Origin: Loxodes magnus
Taxonomy: Eukaryota > Ciliophora > Karyorelictea > Loxodida > Loxodidae
DNA length: 64,000 bases
Assembly: GCA_946699065.1 (NCBI GenBank)
Contig: CAMPDV010000287.1
Location: 248,001-312,000, forward strand
Direction of reading: 5' to 3'
Shown here: positions 7,345 through 61,368 of the stretch, piece after piece
Layout of the letters: each line of letters opens with the position of its first letter
Numbering within the stretch: position 1 is the first letter of the stretch
Notes under the pieces: model-generated
Seen by the model: only the letters and a program-made list of their open reading frames with translations
Databases searched by the model: none
Told to the model about the DNA's origin: nothing
Program-made: the position numbers and the translations under genes

Positions 7345-8990
7345 AATATTAATAAAATAAATAAAATATAATATATATTTTTATTATCATACTTTATTTT
7401 TGATATTTACTGTTATAAATTTACTATTTAACCTCACTTTTTATAAACATTATAATAAAAATGTAAGCCTTACCAAAATGCTTAATCTGCTTGGAAGATT
7501 ACAACTTAACTAACGCTCTTCCAACTGCTTTACCTTGTGGACATATTTACTGTGGTTTATGTTTGAATACTCAGTACTGATTATAAGGATTAATGTCTTG
7601 TCCTATTTGCTAGAAAGCATATCATTTTAAGTTTGAAGATTTACCTAAAGATACAGATATAATAATAAAGATATAAGAGAAAGAATAATAAATCTAAAAA
7701 GGTTAGAATACTAAATAGAAGTTAAAAGATATATAGAGGTAAATAATAGAAAAAGCTTTTACTATTACAAAGAAATAATAAAATATTAGTAAGTTACTTA
7801 TTAACTTAATAGTATAAAGTAATCTTAGGAATAAAGAAATATAATCTTAAAGTGTTTTTTATTTAGATTAGAAAATAAATATCTTATAGAATTGAATAAG
7901 AGATAGAAATATAATTTCTAAATTAAATTTAAAAAGTATTTTTGAAATATAAAATTTAGACTAAAAATAAATGATATAAAAGTAATAAAATTAAAACATT
8001 AAAATCTTATAAACTTAAAAATAAAATTTTATACTTTTACTTAGAAATTTAATAAATTAAAATTACATCTCACTAATAAGAAAGAAACTATAAGAAAATA
8101 TTAATCTATAAGAATAAAAGATGGTTTAGTTAAATATAAAATAAACATAATAAAAGTTAAAAGATTCTATGTATATTCACTATTTTTAGTTTTAAACTAA
8201 AAATTTATGATTATTTAATATCGAAAAAGAATAGCTACAGCAAGTAAAAATTTAAAATATAATTCCAAAAGTAAGTAGAAGTATAGCATATTAAAATAAG
8301 TTATATTTAATTGGAGGATTATCTTAAAATTAACTTTAAGGAATAAAAGAATCTTGATAAATTGATTATGGAGGTAATAGTAAAAGACTTAGTAATCTAA
8401 ATGAAGAAAGATTTGGATTTGGAATAGCAGCAGCTTAAGAACACATTTATGTAGTTGGAGGTGCTATAAGACAGGGATATTTCTTATAATCAGTAGAAAA
8501 GTTAAAAATAGGAAATGAAAATAAATGATAGAACTGTTCTTAATTTCCTTTTTAAATAGCTAACTAAATATTAATAGTAGATAAAGATGAATAAAATATT
8601 TATTCTTTTGGAGGATTAAATTAGAAAAAATAAACTTTGAAAGACATATGAAAGTATAATATATAGAATGATAGATGGAGTAAATGTGATTTGAATCTTC
8701 CTGAAGCTGTTATTTTACCTATAGTGTGCTTAGAACCTTTAGTGATAATTGGAGGTATTACAAATATTTAAACATTAGAATATTCAAGAAGAATATATAA
8801 AAGAAACAAATAATAATGAGAATAAAGATAAATTTTTAAAAATGTTGGTACTTAAACAGATATGAAAGTAAGAGAGAAGTTTGGATATGTTTTTGCTTAT
8901 GAATAAGATAGAGCTTCAGTATTAAAGATCGACTTAGTAAATTTGAGCTATATAGCATTAAAAAGAATTGACTGAGTAATATAATTTTTT
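7345..8990 (+). repeat. Inverted duplication, right arm (mirror of 1405-3075)
   Basis: This arm contains K2 with about 115 bp of 5' flank. The first 60 bp of flank match the left arm almost base for base. The coding parts are also close, but with the indel described for K1. Confidence 0.8.
7461..8975 (+). CDS. RING finger-kelch protein K2, candidate E3 ubiquitin ligase
   Basis: A 504-residue frame closes at TGA 8973 with no shift. Residues 7-50 form a classical C3HC4 RING (C7-x2-C10, C26-G-H28-x2-C31-x2-C34, C47-P-x-C50). A Gln/Lys-rich helical linker follows to about residue 270. A kelch region comes next with LIGG, VVGG, SFGG and IIGG blades and the usual Trp near blade ends; two such Trp (NKWQNC and KDIWKY) are TGA. 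By family knowledge the RING would bind E2-ubiquitin and the propeller a substrate, in cytosol or nucleus. K2 is the intact partner of the inverted pair. I chose the start because it matches K1 and leaves only five residues before the first zinc ligand. Confidence 0.85.
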
Positions 8991-13000: not shown

Positions 13001-13500
13001 TCGTATTATTAACTATTTGAAGATCGTTTTATTGCAAGAATTCTTAAAATCTAGATGTGTTGTCATAATCGTTTTAAGTATTATTTCCGTAATTTTATAA
13101 TAGAGCATTGAAGTCTCCTATCAATATATGAGGATTATTTGGAAGTTATCCAATATATGTATTAATATAATAATAAGCTTAATCTTTAATAAGACTACTT
13201 TTATTATTGTCTAGCATATAGCAAGATGTGATTAATATAGTTTCCATTTTGACTGAAACAAATCGATTTTAGGTTTCTATATTTACTCTAGATTCAGTAC
13301 TATTTATTTCATCTCTAATAATCAAGCTTACATCTTCTCCTTTACCAGCATTTCTAAAGTATATCCTATATCCTTTTATTAGTATAGGAGTAAAATCTTA
13401 TTTTTGTCATATTTCATTAATTATAAATAAAAACTAAGAAAATAAAAATAAAATACAATATGAAGAGTAATAAAGTTATCTTTTTATTATATAAAAATAA
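10001..13500 (-). mobile_element. Degenerate non-LTR retrotransposon (LINE) with APE endonuclease, RT and C-terminal zinc motif
   Basis: From right to left the minus strand encodes three parts. First, an apurinic-endonuclease-like domain with NEIW (Trp by TGA), LIGDFNA and TDHIPI motifs. Second, a reverse transcriptase with DPDGIKGALLKYGG, LIDVEKMFD, a GVMQGS segment and an active-site motif WTDD where FADD or YADD is usual. Third, a tail with the C-x-C-x7-H-x4-C motif (CICGELDKLQHIMDC) common at the end of LINE ORF2. This order is typical of APE-class LINEs (Jockey/I-like breadth; clade not decided). Endonuclease, linker and RT now lie in three different frames, so there are at least two frameshifts, near 12.7 kb and 12.4 kb, and the copy is dead. 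The 3' end is set by alignment with the truncated copy at 36557. The 5' end is uncertain. Confidence 0.85.
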
Positions 13501-16429: not shown

Positions 16430-17877
16430 TCAGTGCTAGATATTTGTAAACAGCAAATTTACTAAAGGACCTTGCTTGTACCATAAGTTATGTTCTTATC
16501 TATCCCAAATATTTTATGTTTCCAAAATTTACACATTGAAATCTTCTTTATCAATACTAAAACGGAAAGATTACAAGTTAGCTTGTTATAAAACACCTCC
16601 CTTTAACTCAATAACAAGAGTATATGGAGTTTCTTGCTAAATTTCTATATCTTACATAATTCAGATTCTATGTATTTTATCTAAAAAATTATAAGATATA
16701 ACTAAGTTATCTTTAGATAAAAACTTTATATTAGATATATCATTGTCCTTCGCTTTATCACCTTAAATAATCATTATCATTGTAATTCTTGATTCTTAAT
16801 CAAAAGATTAGGGTTTGAAAATTTCAAAGCCAAAGAAAAGGCATTTCTTATTAGTTTTAAAAGTTATTATATTAGGTTAATCATTAGGCTTTCATGAGGT
16901 TTCCCTTTAGTTACTGCATCTTTACATTACTATGCAATTTTTTATTTTTCATTATTCTATTTCAAATAATTAAATAAATTTTTTTAATTTTCTTCTGCCT
17001 CTTATGATCCATATGGACTACTAAATAAAAGTTACATCAAAGTTAGTGCTTCCAGTGCTGCATTATTTTCCTATATATAAGATTTTTATATAAGTGACTA
17101 ATATTCTTCCAATTATCGATTCGCTTCGTAATCTCCAAACTAAGCTAACTATTTCAAATGATCTTCATATGTATAAATACTCTCACTTTTATTATATATA
17201 CTTTATTGTTTCTAAATTTCTACTTGCTATTCTTTGTTCATATATTTTATTTGTTTTATTTAATTGCTTATATCTGTTATTTCTATTATTTGTTCTTTTA
17301 ATAAAGTTAATAGTTAATTATCTTTTATTTCTGCTCTTATTTTTTACTTTTTATTTATTAATTTCTCTTGCTTTAGTTCATTTAATTTATTTATTAACTC
17401 CGATAAAGAGCTCTAGTTAATTTAATTTCAGTTGATATTTTATTTATAATCTTTAGATAGTGAAGTTATTTTTTGTCTTATATTTAGTTAGTTAGTTTCT
17501 ATTTGCTATAAAATTAGTTTTTATTACTCTTCTATAATTTAAATAGTTTATAACTTTCGCTACTTCAAGTCTTATACTATCTATCCTAACTAATTAGATA
17601 GAAATCCTATTTTTTACTTCTAGTCCTTTAATATGCTATTTACTTTGTTTTACTAACTTCTTTACTTTATATAATCTAGCAGAAGTAGATTAGTTCTTAG
17701 CTTTAAGTAACTATCACATTACGTGAAATTATCGAAGGGACATTTGATAAAAGAGTTATTGCATAGACATTAACAGCAACTAATACAAAGAGTATGGCCA
17801 CAATTAAGAACTTTAGGAAGTTTAGTTAAAGAGTCATATTGATTTTAGCATAGTTTACAATGAGTAAAGCTATTCAT
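16430..17877 (-). CDS. RING finger / coiled coil / PHR-like protein R1, one frameshift
   Basis: The N-terminus is a RING (C-x2-C, CGHTLC-x2-C, CPFD) nearly identical to R2. A Gln/Leu-rich coiled coil follows, then SPYGS and a C-terminal beta-rich domain (GFEIF, then FNVQILE and GPLVNLLF) shared with R2 and R3. The frame loses one base relative to R2 in a T-run near 16979-16984; after it the C-terminal domain continues in a new frame to TGA 16430. That is either a sequencing slip in a homopolymer or a real lesion. Where R2 has TGG in the C-terminal domain (KSKWTID), R1 has TGA at the aligned place (ETSWKPND), which is direct evidence that TGA means Trp. The C-terminal fold resembles PHR domains; that call is tentative. 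Confidence 0.75.
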
Positions 17878-29508: not shown

Positions 29509-30561
29509 TCAACTTTAAATTTCCTTTATCAATAGACTTGTTAATGGGCCTTCTTTTCGCCAAGATACTTTTTCCTTTTATTAGTTGCTCTAAGTTTCCA
29601 AAATTTGCACATTAAAGTCATTATAATCGATGCTGAGCTTAAAAGTGCTAGGATCGGCTTGAAATAACTCTTCTCCTGTAAGCTACACAGATAAAGTGTA
29701 AATTTGATGTTGTTTTATTATTGGCTTTTAATTGAACTATATTCTCTATACCCTATTTCTATAGTTAAAAGAATTATCTATTTAATCGACGCATGCAAAC
29801 AAAATGGCTTCTGGTTAAACTTAGCAATCGCCCTAGTAAAGAACAATATTGGTAATTGTAGCTTTTTATTCATATGAAGATGATCCAAAAATTTCAAATC
29901 CACAAAATAAGCAGTCTTTATTAATTTTGAATAACAAAAACTAAGGGTTATTATTTATTTTCCACGTACCACGAGGCTCATAACTGCATCTTTATATTTT
30001 CATATAATCTTCTCGATTCTAATAATCCTCTCTTATAGAATTCTCAAATTCCTATAAGTTTCTTTTGTTTATTTTTGCTTCTTCTGATCCATAAGGACTA
30101 CAAAATAGAAGCTACATCATTACAAGAGTCTCTTATACCAAAATATTTTCTTCGACTAAAGACTTTTATAAGAGTATCTAATAGTCCTCTAATTGTCTTT
30201 TCGCTTCAATATTCCCTTCCGATGCTTATTATCTTAACCAATCTTCATATGAACATGCTTTCTTACCTTCAGATTCTACTACTTATAACTCCTTAGCAAG
30301 ATTCAGTGATAGTTGATTTGGTTAAGAAGGGTTTTTTATTTAAGTTTGATTTTTGATATAATCAAAAAGCAATAAATTGCTTCTAAGGTTTTAGTAGTGA
30401 GTTTGAAAAATGAAGCTATCGAACGGACATGTAATAGTTAAGGTCTTTTATCTAAGTTAGCAGCAACTAAGACAAAGAGTATGGCCACAGTCAAGAACTT
30501 TAGGTAACTTATTTTACAAATCATAAGTACTTTAACAGAGTCTACAGTAGATACCATTCAT
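29509..30561 (-). CDS. RING finger / PHR-like protein R3
   Basis: A single frame of 350 residues ends in TGA at 29509. RING ligands are C6-x2-C9, CGHTLC-x2-C and CPFD near residue 46. Compared with R2 the long central coiled coil is mostly missing. The conserved SYEDWL, RQLEDYQ and LLFCSPYGSEEA segments follow, and the C-terminal domain is complete (CGFEIFGSSSYEQ, FNVQILETQ, GPLTSLL). There are no frame breaks. By family knowledge a RING fused to a PHR-like sandwich would be an E3 ligase with a protein-binding tail. It is the shortest of the three R paralogues and lies 366 bp from the end of T2, on the same strand. Confidence 0.85.
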
Positions 30562-30926
30562 ATTAAAATAAATTTATAATCAATTGAATAGAATTAAATA
30601 GTGCAAGCTATAAAATCTAATTAAATTTAACTTTATAAAATAAAATATTTTAATTAATAAAATTAGAAAGCTAAAGTGCTTAGTTATTTAAATGGTTGTC
30701 TATTTTATATATTTGAATGAAAAAATTTTAATCTTAAATGTTAAGAATTCTAAGAAAATAGCTCCTAAATAGATTTTAATAAATCTAGCAGAATAATAAC
30801 TATAATAACTACGCAAATATAGCCAAATTGTGATTTAGAGACTTCGGTATCATATTTCTCTATTTAAATTTATGTTTATAACATAACTTGATTCCGCTTT
30901 AGTCAATATAGTTCACCATTATTTTC

Positions 30927-33551
30927 TCACTACTCATTCTTCTAATTAGCTATGAAAAGCTATTAGTTGAGAAAATCAATTTATTATAATAGTTATTATT
31001 AATACTCTCGAAAGTCGAATATTTAATCCTTCTACCTTTAGATTGAACTTTAGTTACTACTATAATTTTTATTTTTATTATTGTTTTCATTCTAAAGCAT
31101 TTAAATGAATTAAACTTGCTCCTACTGATTTTACATTTTGTGTATTTTCATATTTTTATTCTAAATAGCGAACTCTTTTTCTCTTAGTTAAATTTATCTT
31201 TCTAAAGCTAATTCTTCAAGTTGAATAATTCTGTTAATCATGAAAAAATTTTATTGCCCTAAAGATTAAATTTATTTTTCTTAGTTAAAAAGATCAAAAA
31301 TCAATTGATTTTTCTAATTTTTTAAGATTATTATTTCGTTTTTTTATTTTTAAATCAAGTTTTCTTTTTCTTTTTAATCTCGAACGCAGAAAAATTTTTA
31401 ATTACTCAATTCATCATAAGTTTTGCTTAAAGTGACATGCTTTTATTTGTAATTTTTTAAATCTTCTTTAAGTTTCTGGTATTAATGTTTGAGATTATCA
31501 TGTTACTTGGATAGATTAATTAGTTATTTATTCAGCTTTTAGATTGTGCTTTCATCTTAAGTTGATTTACTTTCTACGACTTGATTGCTACTTTGAAATT
31601 TTATCTAATCTTCCTTAAGTTTTTGGTATTAGAGTTAGAGACTTTCATATTGTTTGGTTAGGTCACTTATCTATTTATTCAGATTTTAGATTGTATTTTC
31701 ATCTTTAGCTGTGATATTTACTGCCATTTGATTACTATTTTAGCTTTTTAGCTAATCTTCCTTAAGTTTTTGGTATTAGAATTGGAGATTTTCATGTTGC
31801 TTGATTAAATCACTTATCTGATTATTAAGATTTTAGATTTTTATTTCATCTTTTGCTGAATTACTTACTGTTTTTTAATTACTACCCAGAATTTTTAACT
31901 AAGTACTAAGTTATTCTATTGTCAATTTATCATCTTATAATTTTTCATTTAAACTTTAGATCTACCTTTCATTTTCGTCTATCTATTTATTCAGATCTTT
32001 TATTTGTTCCTGGTAATTTAAAATTATCCTTTCTTTCTCTTTTTTAATATCTTGAAGTTATTATTTAGGTACTTTAAATTATTTTTCTCTAATATTCACA
32101 TCGCTTATGATCTTTAATTAGCTTTCTATTGTTGCTCTGAGCTATTAAATTTGAGATTTATTTTCTTCTTCTTTTTTTATTAACTCATTAATTTGACTCT
32201 ATTAATCTTAATTCAGTTTATCTTTCTCTTCGACATAAATATTTTTTAACAAAATAGTGCATTAGAGATCTTAGATTTTTATCTATTAACTATTTACTTA
32301 TTTTTTGGAATTTGCTATCTCTTTACTAAGACTTTCTACTTCTTTTTTTCATACTTTTTGCTATTTTTGAAAATCAACTATCTGTCTTTTTTAGTTTTAA
32401 ACCTTTGCTTTTTTTTAGTTCAACCAACCATCCATTTACTAGCTTTACCATTGATATTCTTAAATCTCAGATCCAAAAATCTCAGCATTTTTATGTACTT
32501 CCTCAAGTTCCTTTTATAAGCCTTTAATTACAGATTAATCTTCCTCTTACTACTGCTATAGATATTTAATCCTATCATTTAACTATTTAAGACAATTTAC
32601 TTATTATCTTTCATATTCTTCTTTTTACATTTATAAGTTAGCAATTTTCTGATTCAACAGCTAGATTTGATTTTCATCCTAAGGTTGATTTAATTATCTG
32701 TCTTGTATTTAATCAGTGCTTTCTAAGGGTTTTTTACTTAGTCTCTCTTATACTTTGTTCTTATAGATTTTCAGAACTTTAAGCTTTTAAAAATTTTATC
32801 ACTCTTAAACTTATCACTTTTTCTAGAAAATTTTCTCTTTAAAGTTCAAAACTGCTTACAGATCTTTCTCTAAATCCTCTATTATATGCGATTTTTTATT
32901 TTCGTGTTCAGTCAACTACTTTTGCAGCTCTTTGGCTTCTGCCAGTTTTTCTATTATTTCTTATTGATAAAGCTAAAGTGATTAAAACACGTTTTGCAGT
33001 TCTTCTGAGCATATCTAGTTTACTTATCTAACGAAAAAATTTTGAATCCCATTACTTAAATTCCTTAATTTACTTTCCTTAAAACTTACTTAGCTTTGTA
33101 TGGTTTCTAGCTCTTTTACTCTTTATTCTACCTATATTCGTTACTGCACCTCTCCAAGTTCTTGATTTATTTAGTTCTGCATTTGTTTAATTTTCTACTC
33201 GATAGTTTGTATCTTATGTCCTTTATGTGCAGTTATAGTGCATGCTCCGCATATTTGCATTCCATCATCAATACAGAAGAACTCAAATGCATTCTAATGC
33301 TACTAGCATTGCTACTTCAGCTAATTCTTTTTGATAGCCTAGTTTTCTGGTAAAGGTAAATTAGGTATTTCTAGCTCTTCTATCTTACTATAATCCTTAA
33401 ACATATGTAACTAGCATTTGAAGTATTTTTTCACTTTACCTTATATCTTCAAGCATTTTTCACAATACACACAATCGCACTAAAGTCTTCTAGGACGACG
33501 TGTGTTAAGATCATACATTTGATCGCATAATCCACAGAAGTTAGAAGACAT
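30927..33551 (-). CDS. RING/B-box/long coiled-coil protein T2 (TRIM-like)
   Basis: The frame of 874 residues starts MSSNFCGLC. A variant RING with CDC in place of CGH (C-x2-C, C-D-C-x2-C-x2-C, C-x2-H) is followed by a B-box-2 (CQQH, FFC, ICGAC, H-x2-H within about residues 85-120) and then about 700 residues of coiled coil. The coil contains a 49-residue tandem repeat (NLNKQISDL..YQKLKED). The RING/B-box/coiled-coil order is the tripartite motif of TRIM ubiquitin ligases, in which the coil dimerises. TGA at 30927 is taken as the end. If it and TGA 30903 were read as Trp the frame would continue into a hydrophobic segment, which I consider less likely. Confidence 0.8.
31420..31865 (-). repeat. 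Coding tandem repeat of about 147 bp in T2
   Basis: Three to four diverged units encode a 49-residue period inside the coiled coil of T2, each containing a Q..LN.QI..L stretch followed by YQKLKED. Length is a multiple of three, so copy changes would keep the frame. Confidence 0.75.
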
Positions 33552-37711: not shown

Positions 37712-39160
37712 ATGAGTAGCTTTACTCATTGCAAGCTATGCTAAAATTAATATGACTCTTTAACTAAACTCCCTAAAGTTCTTAACTGTGGCCATACTTT
37801 CTGTATTATTTGTTGCTAATTTCTATACAATGACTCTTTTATCAGATGTCCCTTTGATAATTTTACTTAGTATGATAGTTACTCAAAGTTAAGAACTAAC
37901 TGACTTCTGCTAGATTATATAAAGGAAAGTAGTAAGTAAAGCTCAGCAGCAAACGAACTAAAAGCTTTAAAGTAAAAAGCAGAGTAACTATCTAGTTAGT
38001 TAGAATTGATAGTATAAGACTTAAAGCAGCAAAAGTTATAAACTATTTAAGCTTTAGAAGAGTAATAAAAACTAATTTTATAGCAGATAGAAACTAAATA
38101 ACCAAATATAAGACTCTAAGTCACTTCACTATCTAAAGTTTAAAAGCAGATTATCAATTAAAGTTAAATTAACTAGAGCTCTATAAAAGAGTTAGCAGAG
38201 ATACTAAAAGAACTAAAACAAGAGAATGAAATAACTTGAATTAGAAAAGAAATAAGAGATAATTAACTATTAACTTTATTAAAAGAACTAGTAATATCTG
38301 TTTAAGATAAGAGTATTGAAATAAAGCAGATAAAGTATAAAGAGGAAGAATAGAAAGTAGGAAAATAGAAATATTAATGTGGGTAAAATAATTAGGAGAG
38401 TATTTATACGTATGAAGACCATTTGAAGATGTTAGCTTCTTATGGAGATTACGAAGCGAAAAAATAATTGGAGGAAATTCAGATATTAATATAAGAATCC
38501 CTGGTTTAAGAAAATAGATTGATTTAAGAAAATCTCGTGTTGCAGCAACTTCTTTTCAATAGTCCATATGGATCAAAAGAAGCAGAAGAAAATTAACAAA
38601 ACTTACAGAAGTTTTAAACTAAAGTTAAATTATGAAAACAAAAGAGAGACAACTTTTTGATTGTATAACGATGTAGCACTTAAAATAAAAGTAAGTGGAC
38701 TATAGATAAAAAATTAAATTTGCTAACATTTCAAACTAATAAAGATTGTCTGCTGACTGGATTTTAAATTTTTAGATCTGTTTCCTATGAAACATAAGCC
38801 TCTATTGTTAACCTTTTAATTTACAAAGGAGATTGTTTGACTTAATTAAATGAAGAAGATACTTTGTTTGCAAGTCCTGAAGTCAAAGATATTACATTAA
38901 ATAGTGAAGACAATTAAAAAAAAATATATCTGAATACTGATGTATAATTAAAAAAAGGATAAATATATAGTATAATCTTTGAAATTGAAGGTGGAGATTT
39001 ACTCTAAGCTGATCTTAGTACTTTCAAAAATAGCATCGATTTAGATAATTTCAACGTCCAAATTCTAGAAATTTAGAATACCTTGATTTAAGGCATTTTT
39101 TAAAGCTGGCGTAATAAAGGCCCATTAATAGGTCTTCTGTTTGACAAAATAGAATCTTGA
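37712..39160 (+). CDS. RING finger / coiled coil / PHR-like protein R2
   Basis: An unbroken frame of 482 residues ends in TGA 39158. RING: C7-x2-C10, C26-G-H28-x2-C31-x2-C34, C46-P-x-D49. A Gln/Leu/Lys-rich coiled coil covers about residues 75-240. SYGDYEAKKQLEE and SPYGSKEAEEN segments link it to the C-terminal domain (TFQTNKDCLLTGFQIF ... GPLIGLLF), which resembles the PHR sandwich of the PAM/Highwire and BTBD families; this is a tentative fold call. It is the intact reference copy for R1 and R3. Where R1 has TGA, R2 has TGG at the first Trp of the C-terminal domain. Likely role: E3 ubiquitin ligase, dimerised by the coil, with the C-terminal domain binding target. Confidence 0.85.
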
Positions 39161-41703: not shown

Positions 41704-44274
41704 ATGAACTTGTAAATGTGCTTTCAGTGTGTAAAGGAGCTTGAGTCTAATGATATGGTAGAACTCAGTTGTAGATGTTTGGTATGCATTACTTGTGTCT
41801 CTAGATAATACTAGGTTCAGGTGGTGGGGTTGGGCTAGAAGAAGTAAGAGGAGAATAAGTTTGTGGAAGAGATCGAATGTCCTGTGCTAAAGGATCATAA
41901 TCCTTCGAAGGTTAGTTCTGAAATGATTCAAAGGATCACTCAATTAAAAGGAAAAATCTTGAAAGAAGACTTAAATGCTTATGATAACGAAAACTGCCAA
42001 ACCTGCTTAGAAGCCTAGGTAATAAAATAGACCTAGCAAAAAATTTTAGAGGAGAATAGAAACTTTAGGCTAGAAATTAATGTGCTAAGGGTATAGAACT
42101 AAGAGTTAGCTTAGTAGAAGGATTAATTATGAATAGACAATTTGAAGCTTTAAGAAGAGAATAAGAGTTATTTGCAGAATAGTTAGTAGCTTAACTAAAG
42201 GAACCAGTAATTACTTGAGGAAAAGTAAAATTTTAGATAAAGACTAAACTAATCAGCTATTTAATTTGAGTAGCAATCTGACTAATAGTAGCAGTATTAA
42301 ATAATATTGCATTCCTATTAGTAGCTGCAAAGCAAAATCTAGGCTTTAAAAAGTAAGAAAAAGCTACTCAAATCTTAGAACTATGAGATTCTTAATAAAT
42401 CAAACAATTTCCAAATGCAGCTGGCTAAAATGGAACAAACAATACAAGAGTTATAACCAAATCAACAGAGATTACAATGGAATTAAGAATAAGTAAAAAG
42501 AGCTTATGAGCTAGAAATTAAAAGCCTTAATAATATAATAAAGCAGAAGGATTAATAGTTACAAATCTTTGATTACAAACTAAACTAGTTTGTGGAATCT
42601 AGATAGGCATAGATAAAATAAGATTATTAAGGTAATGAGTAATAATAGTCAGCACGAAGCTTATCATTATAAAATCAGTCGCAAATAAGAAAATCATAAG
42701 AGTAATAAATGATGCCCAATAGTCCTTTCAACTAAGGTGCTATTTAACAGCAAAACAATAACTTAGATAATTAAAACTAGAGATTAAATATCTCCAAAAA
42801 TAAGAGTTTTGATATTCAAATGGTATAAAAAGACTATCAAGTGAATTAGCAAATTATATAGAAAGAATAGAATAAATAGGATTAGAGGCTTGAGTTGTAT
42901 ACAAGTCCTATAATATAAAATGCTATTTCCCTGCCAAATGAAATTCAAAAGCAAAACAGTTTGACTCCTTTGAATAAAGCAAAAAGTAATTTTAATTCCC
43001 TTATAAATCATAGCAGTGTAAAGCAGCTGATATATTAAAGAGAGAATATAGATAATCTTAAATAAGTAGATCCTTACAACTAGATCTACTAAAACAGAAT
43101 TCAAGCTTTAAAATAAAATTACGACTGCTACAGAAGTATTTGAGCAGATGGAAATAGCTTTTACCGTGCGGCTGGCTTTGCATATTTAGAACATTTATGT
43201 AGAAGTTTGACTCCAATCTTAGAACTGGAAAATTTGATTTAGTTGTTTAAAAATACTAATAGTGGATATTTCAAAGTAAGGCCATTTGATAATAGCCATT
43301 GCTACCATAGATAGAAGTTAATTTCGATATTAGACTACATCTATAATTGGAAAAAGCAGAATAATAGCTAAATCATACAGCATCTAGAGTAATTAATTCA
43401 AGCATCTGATGGCTAGTTTGATGAAGCTTTTGTATGGGAAATGCGTTAAATATGTGCTAACTACCTAGAATGCCATCAGCAGATTTACTAACCTCTTTGT
43501 AATCCTAAACCATTTGAAAAAGTTATCTAAGAGACTCTATTAATGGGCTAAGCTGTAGAAGATATATAAATTGGAGCTTTGCAAGTAGTACTCTAGTTTA
43601 AGATTCAATGATAGTCACTCGAAGTAGAAAACGTAAACTTTATGCATTCTGAAAAGTTCAAAATATCGGGCAAAGTTCCAGTGATTCATTTACTTTCTAA
43701 GGAGGACCATTTCGAACTAATTTATACTAAGTCAGCAACAGCATAAGATGGCTATAATGTTTAGAACTGTTAATATTAAGGAACTCACATGAAGAATACT
43801 CAAAGTACAATATTCCTTCAGTAGTTCTATCACGAAATTACCAAAAATGGAAACGAAGCTATTTATGATCCGTAACTTGATTTTCAGCCTTTATGTCGAA
43901 CAGTTTATATTCAGACAGAATTAGCTTAGAAAAAGAACTTTAAAGAAACTAAAATCAAGCAATTAAATTTTTTCGATAAGTCTGAAGAAGCTCAGTAGAT
44001 AGAAGTAGATTTCTCTAAATAGTAAATGAAGGAAGGACTGGTAAATCAATAAAATTTTGAAGTATAATAAATCCAATAATCAGCATAAATCCAAAATCAT
44101 TAGCTAAATGAGAACTGGCAAAATAATAATCAGCAACTCTAATAAATTCAATATCAATAAGAAGCTCATCAATTTTATTTAAAGCAAATGAAAGATAGAG
44201 AAAAAGAGGCTAAATAAGCATAAGAATCATAAGGAGAAATGGCATTCTATAGATAGTCGTCAAGAAAGAAATGA
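41704..44274 (+). CDS. RING-like / coiled coil / otubain-like protein OTU1 with Ser in place of catalytic Cys
   Basis: The frame of 856 residues ends in TGA 44272. It starts with a RING-like zinc module (MCFQC, SCRCLVCITC, ECPV). Residues about 110-470 are a Gln-rich coiled coil. From about 475 to 690 it aligns with peptidase family C65 (otubain): ADGNSFYRAAGFAYLEHL against human OTUB1 PDGNCFYRAFGFSHLEAL, and EDHFELIYTK against GHYDILYK. The nucleophile Cys is Ser485 (AGC), while the neighbouring Asp482 and the general-base His669 are kept. By family knowledge a Cys-to-Ser otubain should not cleave ubiquitin but may still bind it. The C-terminus is Gln-rich. Three in-frame TGA read as Trp, one just before DGNS. 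Paralogue: OTU2 at 53710-56925. Confidence 0.85.
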
Positions 44275-48349: not shown

Positions 48350-49869
48350 CACCCAAAGAATAAGAAATAGCATCACTTACCTTTCAACTTTTAAACGGAG
48401 GAGGAAACACTAAATTTTTACCTTAAAATACCTATCAAAGAGCGTATAATCAATAAGCTTCTCAATCATAACAGGAAAAAGTAGATCTAGATGCAATTCC
48501 TTTTACCTTCTTTAGCCATAATATTAAGTATTTTAGCTCTAACTTATAAAAATAAAGTACTTCTCGTATTGTATATCATTCTCAATAATCCTATCTTTCA
48601 GTCTTAATTTTATAAATATTCCTGAAACTAGAGTAATTTTAGCTTTATTTTGCCTTGTAATTTTAGTATATATGAAATTATAAGCGATATATTAGTAAAT
48701 ATTAGAATCCAATTAAAGGAAAGATGTTATTTGCTCTCTTATCTGTTTTTCTATTTCTTTGAGTCTACAATCGACAAATTGTGCAGTTTTTTCTTTTAAC
48801 CGTTTTTGTATTATTCTTAGCCTAGTTTTTCGTTTAGGATTTGCTAATTATAATCCTATGTTTTGGATAAGTTTTTGTATTTATACTTAAACTCCTCTAT
48901 ATGATTAATATCCACTATATTTATTAACTTTCTATCTATAAATTAATACTCAATCTCTTACATTTCTGTAACACTTTCCATTTTATATCTCAAAGCTCCT
49001 TTTTACTTATTTAATTAAGTGAAGTATCTCATTTTTTCTACTAAATAACTCTAATTAAGTTAGCTAACATAATTCCCCGTTTCATATTGCTAAACACCAA
49101 CTTATAAATTTATACTTAAGCTAGCTATTTTTAGCTTTTCTTCTAATACTCAACTATATAACTAATTTTAAAAGCTTCCTACATCAGGAATTTTAGCTTG
49201 ATTTAAGCCTTTTTGAGTAAGGTATACTTACTCATCCTTATTACTTTATATAAACACTCAGAGAGAATTGATGTAGATGCCTTTTTCTGAAAGGTAGCTT
49301 ACTAGCTGCTTTATTTATTTTTTATACTATACCATGTTGTGAAGATATGGTGGTAGTTATCTATTCAGATATCATATGGAAGCTTATTTCTCGATTTTCT
49401 GCTTCATTGTTTATACAACTGATTTGAGCTAATTTTTTAAAGGCTATTTTAGATATTTACTTCTAATAGCTTCAGGGTATAATTTAAGCTTGTCTAAAAA
49501 AAGCGCAAAATACCAAAGTTTCCTTCAGTATAGTTAAGCATGGGAATTAGCTTAGAATGAAGAAAGATGACTGATTAATTATCTGTAAGAGCAAAGGGAA
49601 AGAGAAGAGTTAATCTTTAAGATAGCATCGCATTATCCTAGAACTATCTCCATCTTTACATTTAAAACAACTGTAAGTAGTAAAACAGTATAGGTTAGGC
49701 AAGCTAGGCTATATTACAACCTCATAACTTTAATTAATACAAAGGGTTGGCGTTTTACTCTTTAGCCTACGATTTAAAGGAATAAACTAACTTCCAACTG
49801 AATAAAAAGGAGTATATAAGAGAATTAAAGAAAGAGGTTTAAATAAAATGGCTATATTGGCTATTCTGA
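48346..49869 (+). CDS. Multi-pass membrane protein M, unassigned
   Basis: Frame of 507 residues starting MTPKEQEIASL, with a soluble Gln/Gly/Asn-rich N-terminus (about 60 residues), several strongly hydrophobic segments between residues 125 and 390, and a soluble C-terminus (YKGLAFYSLAYDLKEQTNF). The first in-frame TGA (49288) is read as Trp because the same frame stays coding-like for 190 more codons; the frame closes at TGA 49867. That end overlaps the acylase start by 22 bp in another frame, so the gene may instead stop at TAA 49839. The antisense frame is also open. Together with P it may form one large membrane protein. Confidence 0.45.
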
Positions 49870-52292
49870 CTTTCTTATTTATTCCTTTGCTTTCCATTTA
49901 TCTAAAATTCATTTACTCCCTTCCTAACTATAGTGGCACCTATATTAATACTTAGGGCTATAATGCTAAAATCTTAAGGGATTAGTATGGATTACCTCAC
50001 ATATAGACGAGTACCGTTAAAGATGGATTTTTTGCGGTTGGATATACACATGGATAAGATAGATTGTGGTAGTTAGAAGCTATGAGGAGAGCTTATAGAG
50101 GTACTCTGAGTGAAGTATTTAGCTCTTTGACGCTTGAGGCGGATAAATATTTAAGAAGTGTTTAATTAGCAAGATTGGCGAAAAAATGCGAGCAGGAATT
50201 ATCTGATGAAGTGCGAGAAATCTTGTAAGCTTATAGTGATGGTATTAACTATTATGCTAGGAACAATTATCTGCCACCTGAATTTGATATCTTCTTTTTA
50301 AGTTGGGAGGATTGGACTCCTGTAGATTCTTGTGGAGTAAATGTGATCTTCGATTTTACGATAAGCTTTACATGAAGTTTCAAATTGCTTAGATCAACCT
50401 TAGTCGAAGTACTTGGTGAAAAATTAGTGGATGAAATTATGCCTGTGTCGATGACTGAAAAATTGCCAGGGCTTAAAACTGTCCTAAAAACAACTGATTT
50501 TCCAGCTTTCAAAGTTGAAAAGCAAGAGGTAAAAAACGAAGCTTAAAATCCATAAAGCGTATATTTGCACTAAGAGCAGAAAGAAATAGATGGCTCTAAT
50601 AATTGGGTGATATCAGGCAAGCATACATATTCTGGATAGCCTCTTATGGGCTCAGATCCTCATTTAGTAAACCTTTTGCCTTCTTAATGGTATCCAATTG
50701 ATTGCAACATGACTTCAATCCATGTCTAAGGAGCCACTATTCCAGGAAGTCCTCTTTCTCTAATAGGTCACAATTTCCATCTAGGTTGGAGTGTAACAGT
50801 AACATGGGGTGACAATACAGATGTTTATTTGCATAAAATAAATCCAGAAAATCCTGATCAATATTGGTATGAAGACTCTTGGGTTTCTTTCAAATTTCTA
50901 GAGGAAAATATTAAAGTTCGCTTCAAGTCAGATGTAGCTTATAGAGTAAAAGTAACTAAATACGGGCCTATAATAAGTGACTTCTCCAAGACTATTCAAC
51001 TCTTAAATAGGTTCTCACCTGATATATCCAACTAAGCAATTAGCTTAAGATGGGTAAGCCATGAAATTGGTAAAGACAATCAAATGAACTCTCAATGGGA
51101 GCTATTTAAAGCAAAAGAAATCAAACAGGCATAGAAATTTGTTTTAGATTTTAATGGTCCACCTTTAAACTTGCTTTTCATTTCACAATCAGGTGATATT
51201 GGCTATCAGTCAATTGGAAAATATCCAAAACGTAAGATAAGTTTGGAACAATATAGTAAAGTACTTGATGGTACAAACGCTGATGCTGACTGGGATGGAT
51301 TGGTAGATGTATAAAAAATGCCATAGATAATGAATCCTGAAAGAGGTTACTTAGCTTCTGCTAATAACTTAGTTCTACCTGATGAGTTAGCTGATACTCA
51401 TTTCGCAAGATTAAATGTATTCAGTCGACCTTCAACTCGTTTCGAAAGAATCGAAGAAGTGATAGAAGGTTGGCTAAAAAGCAAAAAAGTGACAGTGCAA
51501 GATATAATTCAACTGTAAATGGACAATTATAATTTCCTAGCTTGTTATAATCTAAAAACTATGCTAGAAGTACTTAAAAGCGAGCCTTTAAAAGATAAGT
51601 ATAACAAAGCAGTTAGCTCTCTATAAAAATGGGACCTCTAGATGTCTTATAACTCTGTTGAAGCTTCTTTATTCACTACGTGGTACTAAAAAATGCTAGA
51701 TCTTATGATAGCAGATCTTAAAGATTATCCTGATCTATATGAAAGAGTTTCGAGATCCTTATAGTACAAAATCTTTGCCTAGCATTTCTGGAATTAAACA
51801 TCTGAGAGCATTTTAAAGCAAAAGAATCAATTTAATGTAACAAAGTGGTGTCATGGAGACTGTGCAGTGTTATTACTTAATGCTCTAGACCAAGCTATAC
51901 AATATCTAGAAAGCTAGTCTTCTTAGAAATGGGGAGATTTGCATATTAACACTTATATTCATAAAGAGATGAACAAGATTCCTTTAATCAAATCTTTGTT
52001 CAATAGAGAGAGTAATATAGAAGGCTGTGATGATGCTTGTGTGTAGGTAAGTGCTTATGACTGGGCCGGGAATAAAAATTTCCGAGGAATATGGGGATAG
52101 AACTATAAAATGGTGCTATCTCCAGCTAATAAATGGAAAGACAGCTTGCATATTATCGATACAGGAGTATGCGGTCATTTCCTGAGTTCATATTATTTTA
52201 ACTTGAATGAAAAGTTTTATAAAGGAGAGTTTTTATCAATGGGAATAGAGAATGGAGAGCAATATATGGAAACAATCCTAAAATCAAAGTGA
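49848..52292 (+). CDS. Penicillin acylase family Ntn-hydrolase
   Basis: An unbroken frame of 814 residues ends in TGA. Residues 1-25 are a hydrophobic signal or anchor (MAILAILTFLFIPLL), so the enzyme is likely secreted or lysosomal. The alpha-chain part contains the typical ILRDQYGLPHI, GYTHGQDRLWQLEAMRR and GTLSEVF motifs of family S45. The beta chain would start at Ser250 in GSNNWV, the Ntn nucleophile exposed by autocleavage; GSDPH and PGSPLSLIGHN follow as in bacterial enzymes. Family members cut amide bonds in acyl-homoserine lactones, penicillins and N-acyl amines; the substrate here is unknown. Trp176 is encoded by TGA. The family is mostly bacterial, so old lateral transfer is possible. 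The next ORF starts 40 bp downstream. A decayed partial copy lies at 24490-25140. Confidence 0.92.
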
Positions 52293-53709: not shown

Positions 53710-56700
53710 TCATCTTGCTGTTGACTTAAATTCATTTTCGAACTCTTTCTTTTCAACTAATTTTTAGATTTCTTAGTTAGTGAGTATATAAGAACACTAG
53801 GTACACTTAGCAATCTACTTGCATTCGTTTTAGTCTTATTGTATCTAATCCTCTAAGCACCATTTACATACTTTATGATTACACTGAAGTTCTATAACAC
53901 TTTCTGGTTCTATTTCTAGTAAACATTTTTAGCATTTTTCAAATTAAGTATTTAGCAACTTTGGATCTTACATCTGCTTTTAATTTTCAGCTGTGCTTGT
54001 ATAAAAAATATCGTTTTATACTTAAAGAGGTTTGTTTTCATCTAACGGATATTTATTTCTACTTTCATTCATGTAAATAAAAAAAGGTTCCGCTGGATTT
54101 TAAGTGTTATATCCTTTAGGTATCTTTGATTAAAAGCAAATTTCATTGCTTCCATCAAAACCATCAGCCTCTGATTATTCTTTTGTATATATTATGTCAA
54201 AATGGCCTGGCTTTTATAAGATGTATATTAAAGGACATAAACCTGCTACTTCTATTTTTTGAAATGGTATCTTAACCTATTTCACATCTAAAACGACTAC
54301 TTCGATTTTAATCCTCAAAGCAACTTAAAGCAAACCTATTTCAATTCCTTAAGGTTCTTTACCCATTGTAAGTATATCTTTGATCAGTTGATTGTAATTA
54401 ACTGAACTTTATTACTCAAAGTGCTCTCTATGTTGTTCTAAGTAGTTTGCAGTAAGGCATCGCATTTCCCATACAAGTGCTTCATCTTAATTGTCTTTAT
54501 TACTATAGATTTCCTCAGTTAGATATTTCATTATATAGAGGTTGTTCTTCATCTTCTACTATTCCAGATTTGTTAACAGTTACAAGAACGTTTTCCTCAA
54601 TACTTCATGACTATCACTCTAATTGTTTGGTCTTACCTAGTAATACCCAAAGCTTCTATTTATCTTATAAATAAACTCTTATAAATAACCAATGGGAGTA
54701 GTGATTCTTATCAAATGCTCTAAGAATGCAAAGCCAATAGCTCGATAGTAGCTATTTCCATCACCTCTAACAGTTCTATAAGAATTATACTTTTTCATTA
54801 GGTTTTTTACGTTTCCTCTTATAATCTAGTTATAAAAGTATTCATCCATTAAGCTTTCTAGTTTCATTCGAGGATATATTTATTAAACCTGTTGAATAAT
54901 AGAAAAGGATTACTATTTGCAGGAATCAATTTTAGTGCTTTATATATCAGAGCTGCAAGAGATCTAACATTGGTCATTCTAAGGATTCTAGCAAGATGAT
55001 TAATAAGAAAAATCTTAATCCTTTCTTTAGACTGATATTTTCGAATTATCCTATTTTTAAGATTAATCTTCAATTTCTTTTTATTTAAGCCTCGAAATTT
55101 CCTTCTCTTCCTTTTAAGAAGCACTAGCATCTAACTTTTATTCTTCTTTCAACCTTTCCCTTTAACATTCTTATTACATTTCAATATTCATTTCTATCTT
55201 TTCATCTTAAGCCTCTTTTTATTGCTCTTTTTCTTCAAGTTCGCTTTTTTATCTTTCGAGATTCTATTGCTGTTGTTCTGCTTGTATATTCAAAAGTTAC
55301 TCATTTTACTTCTCTATGATATTTCGAAGATCATTTATTTCTTTTTATTGACTTTCAATTATTCCTTTTTACTTTTCTATCAAGCTATTATTTTGGGCAT
55401 AATTCTATGCTATATCACAGCTTATTTGGTTAAGATGCTCATTTTTTTACTTAAATGTTTCTATTTCTTGCATCAGGTTTTAATTCTCAATTTTACATTT
55501 ATTTCGCTACTCTATTGCTTCTTTCATCTACATCTAGCTATAGTTTAATTCGCCTTTCTACCCTTTCTCTTATTTGATCTTTGCTAGTTCTTCACTAAGC
55601 TCTTGCTACTTTTTTTTACTTTCATCTAACTAACTCTACATAACTAGCACTTAGTTTTAATACTAGGATATGTTTTATTCATAAAGTTGCTAGTTCATGA
55701 TTACTTGATCCTGTATTCTATTTTCATTTTATAAGTCTTATTGCTTTCTGTATTTTACTAAAGCTTATTTCAGTTTTTATATCAAATTTTCTTTTTATTG
55801 ATTATCAACCTGGAATTCTTATATTTGTACTTCTAAAGATTAGACTTGTTATTTGCTATTTGATAGCTCTTCGTTAAAGCTAAGGATTTCGGATTTCATT
55901 AGCAACTACTATTGTTGAAATTTCTTGATTTCTCTTCTTTAGTTTTCAACCTTCATTTCCTTTTCCTATACCTATTGTTCTATACCTTAGCTTTCCTCAT
56001 CATATTCTTAAATATCTAAATTCAGACACTCTACAATACTTCTTGCATTCATTAATTCCTCATGCAGTCTTTTAACCTCAGCATTACTTTCTTCTTATTT
56101 TAGCCTCATTTCTTACAATTCATCACTATGTCTTTTCCTCATAATCTCCCTTTCTTGCTCCCATTCTTCTTTCTAGTTCTTTAATTTTTGAATCTCCGAA
56201 TTTAAGTTATTCAAAAAAATCTCATTGAAAGATTCAATGATCTCACTGTTTTTCTAATAAATGGTATTTTCCTACTATCAGTTTAACTACTTGAGCTTTA
56301 ATTCTACCATCTTCTTGCAGTTTTCTACTACTCTTTCTTTTTCATCGTTTGATCATTTATTTATCTTTTAAGTCAAATCTTCTCATTTCTCTTTTTAAGC
56401 TTTTATAGCTTTAAGTTTTTACTCATTTTGCTATTAAATTGAACTGCTTTATCTTTCTATTTGTTGAAGCTGATCTTATAGGATTTTAGTATCTAAATGT
56501 TTGTCTATAATCCTTTGCTAGCGAAGGAAAAAGTCATTAAAGGTATTTTATAGTTCTTCCTGACATATTTGCTGAGTTTTGTCCATTAGCTAGTTAAGGT
56601 TCTAGTTATCCTATTACCTTCTCTAGCCTTGCTGGGTATTGACCTACATTTATTAGATTTAGATCTAATTCTAATCTACTTATCTCTACTCCAACTGATA

Positions 56701-56925
56701 CTATTTCTAAGCTAGATCTTATCTTAGTAACTCATACGCTATTTCTAGCTCTTCTATGCTTTACTAGCTCTAATATTTATGCAGCTAACATTCGAAGCTT
56801 TGCTTCATTCCTTTTTCCTATCTCAAGCATTACTCGCATTTAACACAACCACATCCGAGTAGCTTAGGCAGTCGCTTTTCTATATCAAAATCTTTCAAGC
56901 AAGATCCACAAGGTTTAGAAGCCAT
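53710..56925 (-). CDS. RING / coiled coil / otubain-like / RING protein OTU2 with Ser in place of catalytic Cys
   Basis: Unbroken frame of 1071 residues, TGA stop at 53710. A variant RING at residues 6-49 (CGSC, CGCVKCEQC, C-x2-H) resembles those of T1 and T2. About 600 residues of Gln/Glu/Lys coiled coil follow. The otubain (C65) domain spans about 690-915: RGDGNSYYRAIGFAFLEHL aligns with the nucleophile loop, with Asp722 kept but Ser725 (AGC) at the Cys position, and PGHFDIIYT carries His908. After it comes a second, C-terminal RING (CQKC, LQCNHKVCKWC, CTQC) at about 985-1035. By family knowledge this should be a ligase-like protein carrying an inactive deubiquitinase fold that could read or hold ubiquitin. 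Several Trp in the coil are TGA. It is paralogous to OTU1 but longer. Confidence 0.9.
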
Positions 56926-58548: not shown

Positions 58549-61368
58549 TCAAAAGTTAAGCTAAATCCAGTTTCCTCCCTTTACTTCATAAGAATATAAC
58601 TTCTACCCATCTGTCTAGAACATAAATATATTCTAGTTCTGGTATATTCCGTTGAAGCAGAAGGAGTAGTATTAATATTGATGGAAGCTAGGGAATTACT
58701 ATCCATGCTTATAGAATTGCTAGAAGTCAAATGCAAAAGTTTGCTGTAGTTGGGAGTAGTTATCAAAGAGGAACGATAGCTCTAAATCAGGAGCGAAAAC
58801 TGCTGAGCAATAAGCTACTCTTGCTGGAATTTAGGACTAAGAATGAATTCATTTGTTACTAGAAATGTCATAAAAGCAAATCTTATCATCACATTTTTCT
58901 CCATAACCTCCATAAGTTCATATTAAATCATATGCATAAGCTATACCAGGTCGAGTCATTTAGTAAGGGTGATCTTATATCTAAGTTTATTAATGATTTT
59001 AGACGTTAAACATCTCACATTTGTTAGAGATGCCTTATTAAGACATAATGCCATTAACTATGAAAGCATTATTCAAATTATCATAGACTATTGAAGTTAT
59101 CAGCTTAGGTTAAAGCAATTTGAACTATTGGACTTTAGTCTGCACTAGAAATATACTATCTCGGTGTTTACTTTATTCTTATCCTCCAGCTAGAACTAAA
59201 TCTTCATTACTAATTTAAGTCGAAAATGTATAGTTATGCCAAACTTTTTCTATTGGAATAGTAAACATTTATCCTGACATGGTTTTTAATATATAAATCA
59301 GCTTATAATTACTACTGTACCAAGATATTATATATTGAGTTCATTCTTTTTTCTTGTTCTAATTTCTGCTTATAATGGCTTATTTATCATAAGCAATCTC
59401 TTTACTTTATTTTGGGTTTTCTTCATTTTTTAGCTATTTAACTATATGAGGTTCTTTTTCCTGTATCTATACAGGTCGAATTTAAGGCTCATTTTATATC
59501 TACTATTTTTAAACTTCCACTATTTTTTACTTGTTCTTTTATTGAGCTTATTATCTAACATTTTCTTAAGCTTATTATATCACTTTTTCTTAAGGTTATT
59601 ATTTAATATTTTCTTAAGCTTACTATATCACTTTTTCTTAAGCTTATTATATCACTTTTTCTTAAGGTTATTATATCACTTTTTCTTAAGCTTATTATAT
59701 CACTTTTTCTTAAGCTTATTATCTAACATTTTCTTAAACTTACTATCTCACTTTTTCTTAAGCTTATTATATCACTTTTTCTTAAGCTTATTATATCCCT
59801 TTTTCTTAAGGTTATTATCTAACATTTTCTTAAACTTACTATCTCACTTTTTCTTAAGCTTACTATATCACTTTTTCTTAAGCTTATTATATCACTTTTT
59901 CTTAAGGTTATTATATCCCTTTTTCTTAAGGTTATTATCTAACATTTTCTTAAACTTACTATCTCACTTTTTCTTAAGCTTACTATATCACTTTTTCTTA
60001 AGCTTATTATATCACTTTTTCTTAAGCTTACTATATCACTTTTTCTTAAGGTTATTATCTAACATTTTCTTAAACTTACTATCTCACTTTTTCTTCAGCT
60101 TACTATATCACTTTTTCTTAAGGTTATTATCTAACATTTTCTTAAACTTACTATCTCACTTTTTCTTAAGCTTACTATATCACTTTTTCTTCAGCTTACT
60201 ATATCACTTTTTCTTAAGGTTATTATCTAACATTTTCTTAAACTTACTATCTCACTTTTTCTTCAGCTTACTATCTAACCTTTGCTTCATCTTGCAGTCT
60301 TATTTTTTCTTCAGTTAACTATCTTACTTATTCCTCAAGATTTGATTTTGTCTTTTCCATCTCTTTCAAAGTAGAAGTTACCTAGCCTATTTATCAGCCT
60401 TTATTAACAAGATCTTAATTTAAATTTGCGTTCTGTATTTTTAAGCTCTCTATCTATTATTAAAGTTCATTAATTTGGATTTCATACTAAAAATTATTAC
60501 TTTGCTATGAATTAAATTCCTAGTTTTCTTCAAGCTAATACTTTAAGACTAAATGCTAATTTATTTTACTTTTAAAAGTTCTGATATATTAATTCAGCTC
60601 ACTATCTTAAATAATTTATTGCTCTAAGCTACTTTTGATTCTCTCATATTCTCCCTTCAACACTTAAAGTTCCTTTATTACTAACTTGCATTCTTCTATA
60701 GAGTTATTTTGCTTCTATCTAGTTTAAAATATCTTGCTTTACATGTTCATGATGGAAGTTATCTTTTGAGTATTTTCTTAGTTGAACTTTGAAAGTTCTT
60801 CAAGTTAGATCCTCAATTCTCTTAAGCATATTTAGTCAATTAAGCTGTGCAACTGAGTTTAAGTATTTATAGCTTCTTATCTTAGGTAAACTAGTTTACT
60901 TCCTAGATTCTGCTAAATAGCTTTACAGGCTTTAAGTTTTTCCTATGCTTGTAATTAATCTTCTAGGGCTTAGATTTCAAGTGCAATTTACCTTTTGATC
61001 CCATGAAATTTTTACTCTAGTGATATGAAATTATGACCTTCATGGTTTGTAATTGTACATGTTCCACATACTTTTTCATCATCATCTGAACAGAAAAACT
61101 TATACAGTTCTTAATGATGCTGGCACATTTAAGACTGCTAAACCTACTATTTTCCTGCTTCTTGCTTCAAATACTCCTAAGCTACCTCTAGACTTTCTAC
61201 CAGTTTACTACTCCTCTGCTTATGAATTTGACATTTATAGAACTTGTTTATCTTAGTAAACACCTTTAAGCATTACTCGCAATAGACACAGCCACATTCA
61301 AGTCTCCTAGGTAATTTTTTATTTCTATCATAATCTTCATCACATAGTTTACAAGCTAGCTCTGACAT
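58549..61368 (-). CDS. TRIM-like RING / B-box / coiled coil / kelch protein T1
   Basis: One frame of 939 residues, TGA at 58549. RING variant: C6, C9, C25-G-C27, C30, C33, C46-x2-H49. B-box-2: C82-x2-H85, C93, C101-x2-C104, H109-x2-H112. The coiled coil runs to about residue 650, its last 250 residues being an 8-residue repeat (QEKVIQQA) encoded by a 24-bp minisatellite. A linker and a C-terminal kelch region follow (LAGGQE, WTYGGYGEKCDDKICFYDISSNKW). TGA encodes Trp at conserved kelch and linker places. Known role of RING/B-box/coil proteins: E3 ligases; the kelch propeller would bind substrate. The long hydrophobic plus-strand frame opposite the repeat is an antisense shadow. Confidence 0.9.
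59548..60285 (-). repeat. 24-bp coding minisatellite, about 30 units
   Basis: The plus strand shows a regular 24-bp period such as cttattatatcactttttcttaag, with variants containing ctaacattttcttaaa. Read on the minus strand in the T1 frame it encodes QEKVIQQA, QEKVRQQV and QENVRQQ octads, mostly Gln from TAA and TAG. The unit is a whole number of codons, so array length can vary without a frame change. Variants occur in a higher-order order, which suggests multi-unit duplications. Confidence 0.95.

What the first reader, a model, noticed from the sequence alone, without database searches (positions are those of the whole stretch)
53710..56925. RING/coiled-coil/otubain fusion with catalytic Cys replaced by Ser and a second RING (OTU2)
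Seen: an otubain nucleophile loop DGNS (Ser725) where family C65 has DGNC, Asp722 and His908 conserved, flanked by an N-terminal variant RING and a C-terminal RING. Known: otubains need Cys for cleavage, and inactive OTU folds can still bind ubiquitin or E2. Inference: a ligase-like protein that reads or shields ubiquitin chains rather than cutting them. I know of no described protein with this architecture.
Basis: partly seen in the sequence, partly recalled or inferred. Interest (0 to 1): 0.9.

Follow-up and report, generated by a model that had tools for sequence, protein, structure and literature searches.

The report
RING protein with cysteine-less otubain domain
A ciliate-like genome carries a protein that joins ubiquitin-ligase-type RING fingers to a ubiquitin-cutting (otubain) domain whose cutting cysteine has become a serine, and a related gene nearby shows the same change, so the domain is probably kept for holding ubiquitin rather than cutting it; this has not been tested at the bench.

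Summary
Window 53710-56925 (-), read with TAA/TAG as Gln and in-frame TGA as sense, is one frame of 1071 codons: variant N-terminal RING (residues 6-49), long Q/E/K-rich region, full-length Pfam C65 otubain domain (681-913, E 6.3e-27), C-terminal C3HC4-pattern RING (998-1044). The nucleophile loop is DGNS, Ser725 = AGC; Asp722 and His908 are kept.

New here: a second RING-otubain gene in the window (41704-44271, +) has the same DGNS and AGC codon, at 39% identity over the domain, and no cysteine is invariant between the two domains. So a base error, or a shared cysteine elsewhere in the domain, is unlikely. The otubain sits where sister genes carry Kelch or PHR domains; nine RING fronts of one family were found, two of their genes with a change of frame.

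Best reading: a pseudo-deubiquitinase used as a ubiquitin-binding module on a RING scaffold. Ser-for-Cys OTU proteins are already described (Drosophila Otu, CG3251), so this is a new variant of a known kind. Binding, ligase activity and absence of cleavage are untested; structure prediction failed (pLDDT 34.3, 46.5). That TGA is sense is well supported; that it means Trp is less direct.

The parts
53710..56925 (-). OTU2 gene, 1071 sense codons plus final TGA; ATG at 56925
   Evidence: continuous frame with TAA/TAG=Q, TGA=W
56779..56910 (-). N-terminal variant RING, residues 6-49, ligands C6 C9 C25 C27 C30 C33 C46 H49
   Evidence: Pfam RING_UBOX E 0.0042, below cut-off; ligand pattern, 0 of 20000 shuffles; RING family profile
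54946..56763 (-). long Q/E/K-rich, probably coiled-coil region, about residues 55-660
   Evidence: composition and alignment to paralog 30900-33551; no coil predictor run
56278..56385 (-). stretch with the three in-frame TGA codons (56383-56385, 56353-56355, 56278-56280; residues 181, 191, 216)
54187..54885 (-). otubain domain, Peptidase_C65, residues 681-913
   Evidence: Pfam E 6.3e-27, profile 7-242/243; OTUB1 chains, phmmer E 1.8e-17 to 8.5e-17
54760..54762 (-). Asp722 codon of the DGNS loop
54751..54753 (-). Ser725 codon (AGC) where OTUB1 2zfy has Cys
54202..54204 (-). His908 codon (CAT)
53794..53934 (-). C-terminal C3HC4-pattern RING, residues 998-1044
   Evidence: ligand pattern; best PDB match 7yui_B, a RanBP-type and C3HC4-type zinc finger protein, E 0.01; Pfam E 0.2 only
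41704..44271 (+). OTU1, second RING-coil-otubain gene, ATG at 41704, TGA at the end
   Evidence: Pfam C65 E 4.2e-20; frames; RING profile; ATG
43156..43158 (+). Ser codon AGC of the DGNS loop of OTU1
43018..43725 (+). otubain domain of OTU1, with in-frame TGA codons at 43141-43143 and 43609-43611
   Evidence: Pfam match, codon list
30900..33551 (-). paralog: RING + B-box + coil; 32% identical to OTU2 in the alignment; its true end is uncertain
58552..61368 (-). paralog: RING + B-box + repeats + Kelch

Best explanation
OTU2 (and OTU1) are pseudo-deubiquitinases built on a TRIM-like scaffold: an N-terminal RING and a long coil carry, in the C-terminal slot that sister proteins give to a Kelch or PHR domain, an otubain domain that has lost its cysteine but kept the Asp and His of the site. 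Most likely the otubain binds ubiquitin, a ubiquitin chain or a ubiquitin-charged E2 without cutting it, and so brings the RINGs to ubiquitin-marked targets or controls the E2 that the RINGs use. Shown: the domains by sequence, the Ser in two related genes, the kept Asp and His, constraint on the protein. Inferred: coil pairing, ubiquitin binding, ligase activity, lack of cleavage.
For: Full-length C65 match in both genes. DGNS with AGC in both; Asp, His and 22 other columns invariant across OTU2, OTU1, OTUB1 and OTUB2. No cysteine among the invariant columns of the two domains; OTU2 has Cys only at 823 and 897 in the domain. Amino-acid constraint: pN 0.39 against a near-saturated pS 0.74; 53 of 90 columns with the same residue (Met and Trp left out) use different codons. 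The otubain occupies the slot of Kelch or PHR in sister genes. The solved OTUB1 chains 4i6l and 4ddg (the latter fused to UBE2D2) read dgns, while 2zfy reads dgnc; that the first two are engineered C91S forms that still bind is recall. OTUB1 blocks E2s without catalysis (PMC10919355 section 3.3). The Ser-OTU proteins CG3251 and Otu cut none of the chains tested (PMC4654579, parts 1-2 of 4).
Against: No binding or activity data. At the OTUB1 position T134 (proximal-ubiquitin and E2 side; role and number recalled) OTU2 has Gln and OTU1 Lys, and nearby OTU2 has 9 and OTU1 7 residues that OTUB1 lacks. Neither OTU2 RING has a hydrophobic residue before the second ligand (CGSC, CQKC), and the C-terminal one has Ser after the last ligand, so the usual E2 contacts (recalled) look poor. 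OTU1 did not match the eight-ligand pattern. CG3251 and Otu stayed inactive even as Cys forms, so other features can be lost with the Cys, ubiquitin binding among them (PMC4654579). Structure prediction failed: pLDDT 34.3 and 46.5; a fold search with the second model had 0 matches at E <= 0.001.
Confidence: 0.5

Rival explanations
1. Serine nucleophile: the Asp/Ser/His site still hydrolyses ubiquitin bonds, slowly or on ester-linked ubiquitin.
For: Asp722, His908 and Asp910 are kept in OTU2. A research paper notes that Ser mutants of deubiquitinases may keep some hydrolase activity (PMC6172466 passages). I recall a published claim of activity for Drosophila Otu, not checked here.
Against: CG3251 and Otu, with the same Ser, cut none of the chains tested (PMC4654579). 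OTU1 has Glu where OTU2 has Asp910.
Confidence: 0.12
2. Ubiquitin-independent scaffold: the fold is kept only as a protein-binding surface.
For: The two domains share stretches that OTUB1 and OTUB2 lack (GYxxVRP, DEAxVWEMR, ANYLE, IGxLQV), as for a private partner surface. PMC4654579 proposes a presumably ubiquitin-independent role for CG3251.
Against: The DGN loop is among the best kept stretches and the His is kept in all four sequences.
Confidence: 0.23
3. Relic of a birth-and-death gene cluster: OTU2 is not, or hardly, functional.
For: Two sister copies, 1000-2947 and 16430-17877, change frame once; a short intron is not excluded there. A reverse-transcriptase element endonuclease lies in the window. 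In-frame TGA codons occur in OTU1 and OTU2.
Against: No frame change in 1071 and 853 codons; Ser, Asp and His shared by both; pN well below pS.
Confidence: 0.12
4. Assembly or reading error at codon 725.
For: AGC and TGC differ by one base.
Against: The second gene has AGC at the same place.
Confidence: 0.03

Closest known systems
OTUB1 and OTUB2 (Peptidase C65 otubains)
   Same: Same domain over its whole length; DGN loop, His and other invariant columns.
   Different: Ser for Cys; RINGs and long coil fused; extra residues after the GYxxVRP stretch; OTU2 is 29% and 23% identical to them.
Drosophila CG3251 and Otu (OTUD4 family), parts 1-2 of PMC4654579
   Same: Natural Ser for Cys with Asp and His kept; loss seen in more than one gene copy.
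   Different: OTUD4 branch with a Tudor domain; no RING described in the parts read.
A20/TNFAIP3 (recalled)
   Same: OTU domain and ligase-type zinc fingers in one chain.
   Different: Active Cys; A20-type zinc fingers, not RING; other OTU branch.
TRIM proteins
   Same: RING, coil and an exchangeable C-terminal domain (general scheme recalled); two sister genes here have RING-family fronts and B-boxes.
   Different: OTU2 has no B-box match and carries an otubain and a second RING.

Membership tests
Peptidase C65 otubain | C65 domain above the Pfam cut-off | tested here: met
   95.0 bits against 24.3, profile 7-242/243
Peptidase C65 otubain | catalytic Cys in DGNC | tested here: not met
   Ser725, AGC; also Ser in OTU1
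Peptidase C65 otubain | Asp and His of the site | tested here: met
   D722, H908 aligned with OTUB1 and OTUB2
Peptidase C65 otubain | ubiquitin chain cleavage | not testable with these tools
   needs protein
OTU-type pseudo-deubiquitinase | OTU domain by sequence, nucleophile missing, no shared Cys in its place | tested here: met
   a three-dimensional check failed
OTU-type pseudo-deubiquitinase | no catalytic activity | not testable with these tools
   needs assay
RING E3 ligase | eight zinc ligands in cross-brace spacing | tested here: inconclusive
   pattern present twice, 0 of 20000 shuffles, but Pfam scores below cut-off
RING E3 ligase | E2-dependent ubiquitin transfer | not testable with these tools
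   needs assay
TRIM (RING, B-box, coiled coil) | B-box | tested here: not met
   no B-box listed at E <= 1 for OTU2; alignment gap where two sisters have it
TRIM (RING, B-box, coiled coil) | coiled coil | not tested
   Q/E/K-rich region seen; no predictor run
Karyorelict-type code (NCBI 27) | TAA/TAG=Gln, TGA=Trp or stop | tested here: inconclusive
   TGA read through in frame in five genes and kept at the same sites in two Kelch copies; Trp identity only indirect; a Condylostoma-type code is not excluded

The most novel reading that the evidence does not exclude
A ciliate family of RING proteins in which a cysteine-less otubain has taken the place of the substrate-recognition domain, so that ubiquitin itself, or ubiquitin-charged E2, is what the ligase recognises; it arose by exchange of C-terminal domains within a local cluster of RING genes that also bears Kelch and PHR forms.
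Probability: 0.3. Interest if true: 0.7.

Novelty: new variant of a known kind. Interest (0 to 1): 0.5.

Why it matters
Biochemists make the Cys-to-Ser form of OTUB1 to trap ubiquitin complexes (recalled); here two related genes carry that form naturally, on RING scaffolds. If it binds ubiquitin, it would show how a cutting enzyme becomes a reader inside a ligase-type protein, and it gives a natural test of what an otubain does without catalysis. It also adds a case of Cys loss in the otubain branch to those known in the OTUD4 branch.

Tried and rejected
Rejected: TGA as stop throughout. It would split OTU2, OTU1, both B-box genes and the acylase in frame, with no frame change in any of these five. 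Two Kelch copies (7464-8975 and 1000-2947) keep TGA at five matching sites, by my inspection of the translations. For what TGA means: with TGA read as Trp, the acylase TGA falls on a Trp of 7rep; with TGA read as Ala, the alignment with 4hsr crosses the codon but puts it beside a Trp, not on it, and the printed 4pel, 4pem and 35sz alignments end before it; the RING of 7464-8975 puts it one place after the Trp of TRIM25; in OTU1 it stands where OTU2 has Arg and Val. So sense is well supported; Trp rests mainly on the karyorelict code in print (PMC11441545 passages). Unexplained: TGA is 1 of 22 Trp-type codons (TGA + TGG) in the acylase but 15 of 27 in the four RING genes, Fisher p 1.5e-4.

Led nowhere: viral-contig scans with two alignments (547 pattern matches; 35; none confirmed by tblastn); no own genome held; AlphaFold2 with two sequences, pLDDT 34.3 and 46.5, and a fold search with the second model, 0 matches at E <= 0.001, which says nothing about the fold. 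Pfam scan of 10 further frames: 1 of 10 had a hit at E <= 0.01. Papers: PMC4654579 parts 1 and 2 of 4; PMC10919355 passages and section 8; PMC6172466 abstract, outline and passages; PMC11441545 passages; the rest seen only as search listings. Lists shown against papers found: 3 of 3, 20 of 194, 5 of 5, 20 of 156, 13 of 13, 10 of 16, 15 of 471, 12 of 99, 12 of 4478, 4 of 4.

Full report
What the window is. Under the bacterial/standard code the window has one ORF of 150 aa or more; under TAA/TAG=Gln it has 77 of 200 aa or more, many of them overlapping and not genes. Gene frames run across in-frame TGA codons without a shift: 16 TGA in 4561 codons of five genes (OTU2 3, OTU1 3, 30900-33551 5, 58552-61368 4, acylase 1). 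The last two TGA of 30900-33551 lie close to the end that I chose for that gene, so its true end is uncertain. Two Kelch copies keep TGA at five matching sites (inspection), which speaks for a sense codon under constraint. Under this reading every gene ends in TGA by construction, so the ends do not tell one ciliate code from another; three PHR-type frames do end at matching places. All this fits a karyorelict ciliate, where UGA is Trp or stop by context, with coding GC 33.5% and 3' UTR GC 18.6% in Loxodes magnus (PMC11441545 passages); the five genes here have 26-34% GC. The species was not identified, and a Condylostoma-type code is not excluded.

The finding. OTU2 is a continuous frame from ATG 56925 to TGA 53710. 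Pfam gives one strong domain, Peptidase_C65 at residues 681-913. Its loop is RGDGNSYYRA against RPDGNCFYRA in OTUB1 2zfy, with no gap. Twenty-four of 265 columns are invariant among OTU2, OTU1, OTUB1 and OTUB2, including the Asp and His but not the Cys column. OTU2 also keeps an Asp two residues after the His, as OTUB1 does; OTU1 has Glu and OTUB2 Asn.

The second gene. OTU1 (41704-44271, +) has a RING-family front, a long Q-rich region, and a C65 domain (E 4.2e-20). Its loop is also DGNS, AGC codon. The two domains are 39% identical, with weak similarity past the domain, so the Ser was most likely present in their common ancestor. No Cys is among their invariant columns; OTU2 has two Cys in the domain and OTU1 six. 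OTU1 shows no C-terminal RING, and no stretch of it fits the strict ligand pattern.

The RINGs. The N-terminal RING of OTU2 has ligands C-x2-C-x15-C-x-C-x2-C-x2-C-x12-C-x2-H; the Cys in the fourth place is shared by the two B-box genes and OTU1, while the PHR gene in the alignment has His. The C-terminal RING has the ordinary C3HC4 order. Both score below Pfam cut-offs. The pattern was absent from all 20000 shuffles. Whether either RING is an active ligase is open, and the usual E2-contact positions (recalled) look poor.

The surroundings. A profile of five RING fronts, run on all six frames of the window, found nine RING fronts with E below 1e-8 (five of them in the profile, four new): 2768-2932, 7479-7613, 17689-17865, 30376-30552, 33360-33551, 37724-37900, 41704-41886, 56734-56925, 61177-61368. 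Further rows below E 0.01 were pieces of the same fronts in overlapping chunks. Their tails are Kelch (7464-8975 and 58552-61368 by Pfam; 1000-2947 by inspection), PHR (29512-30561, 37712-39157, and a piece at 16430-16900), a coil with B-box (30900-33551), and otubain (OTU1, OTU2). The 1000-2947 copy changes frame once after its RING and then runs on through the Kelch part; the 16430-17877 copy changes frame once before its PHR part. These may be broken copies or may hold short introns. So this is a local family of RING genes whose tails differ, and the otubain occupies the tail slot.

Constraint. Between the OTU1 and OTU2 domains pN is 0.39 and pS 0.74 (near saturation); third positions differ most (0.59 against 0.47 and 0.33 at first and second), and 53 of 90 columns with the same residue (Met and Trp excluded) use different codons. 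Both have therefore been held as proteins for much of the time since they split, though this pairwise test cannot exclude a recent loss.

How it probably works. In OTUB1 the distal ubiquitin binds at the catalytic site, and the protein can hold a ubiquitin-charged E2 without cutting (PMC10919355 section 3.3). Loss of the Cys removes cutting but need not remove binding; in OTUD1 a Cys-to-Ala form binds K63 di-ubiquitin at about 40 uM, while Cys-to-Arg abolishes detectable binding (PMC6172466 passages). The same paper calls Ser the most conservative substitution. Against this, CG3251 and Otu suggest that other features can be lost too (PMC4654579). I favour a ubiquitin-holding module on a RING scaffold (0.5), over a ubiquitin-independent scaffold (0.23), a serine hydrolase (0.12) and a relic (0.12).

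Novelty. Natural Ser-for-Cys OTU proteins are in print: Drosophila CG3251 and Otu cut none of the chains tested, and their Cys forms gave no activity either (PMC4654579). I did not see the same loss in an otubain joined to RINGs in the listings; these cover open-licence full text only, five of the seven lists were capped, and no protein database of eukaryotes could be searched here. It is a new variant of a known kind.

Noticed in passing
window 1000-61368: Nine RING fronts of one family within 64 kb, on both strands, with Kelch, PHR, B-box or otubain tails; two copies change frame once.
   Followed up: partly
window 7464-8975 (+) and 1000-2947 (-): Two Kelch copies keep in-frame TGA at five matching sites, one of them in the Kelch stretch KDI-TGA-KYNIQNDRW, which speaks for TGA as a constrained sense codon.
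   Followed up: partly
window 49848-52289 (+): Penicillin-amidase family protein (Pfam E 8.8e-161) with 1 in-frame TGA and 21 TGG, a much lower share of TGA than in the RING genes.
   Followed up: partly
window 12411-13325 (-): Endonuclease of a reverse-transcriptase element (Exo_endo_phos_2, E 7.6e-11), so a LINE-like element lies in the AT-rich half.
   Followed up: no
window 59344-60393 (-): Long run of Q-rich repeats of about eight residues (VRQQ/VIQQ) inside the RING + B-box + Kelch gene.
   Followed up: no
window 56353-56355 (-) and 32799-32801 (-): OTU2 and its B-box paralog have in-frame TGA in the same alignment column of the coil.
   Followed up: no
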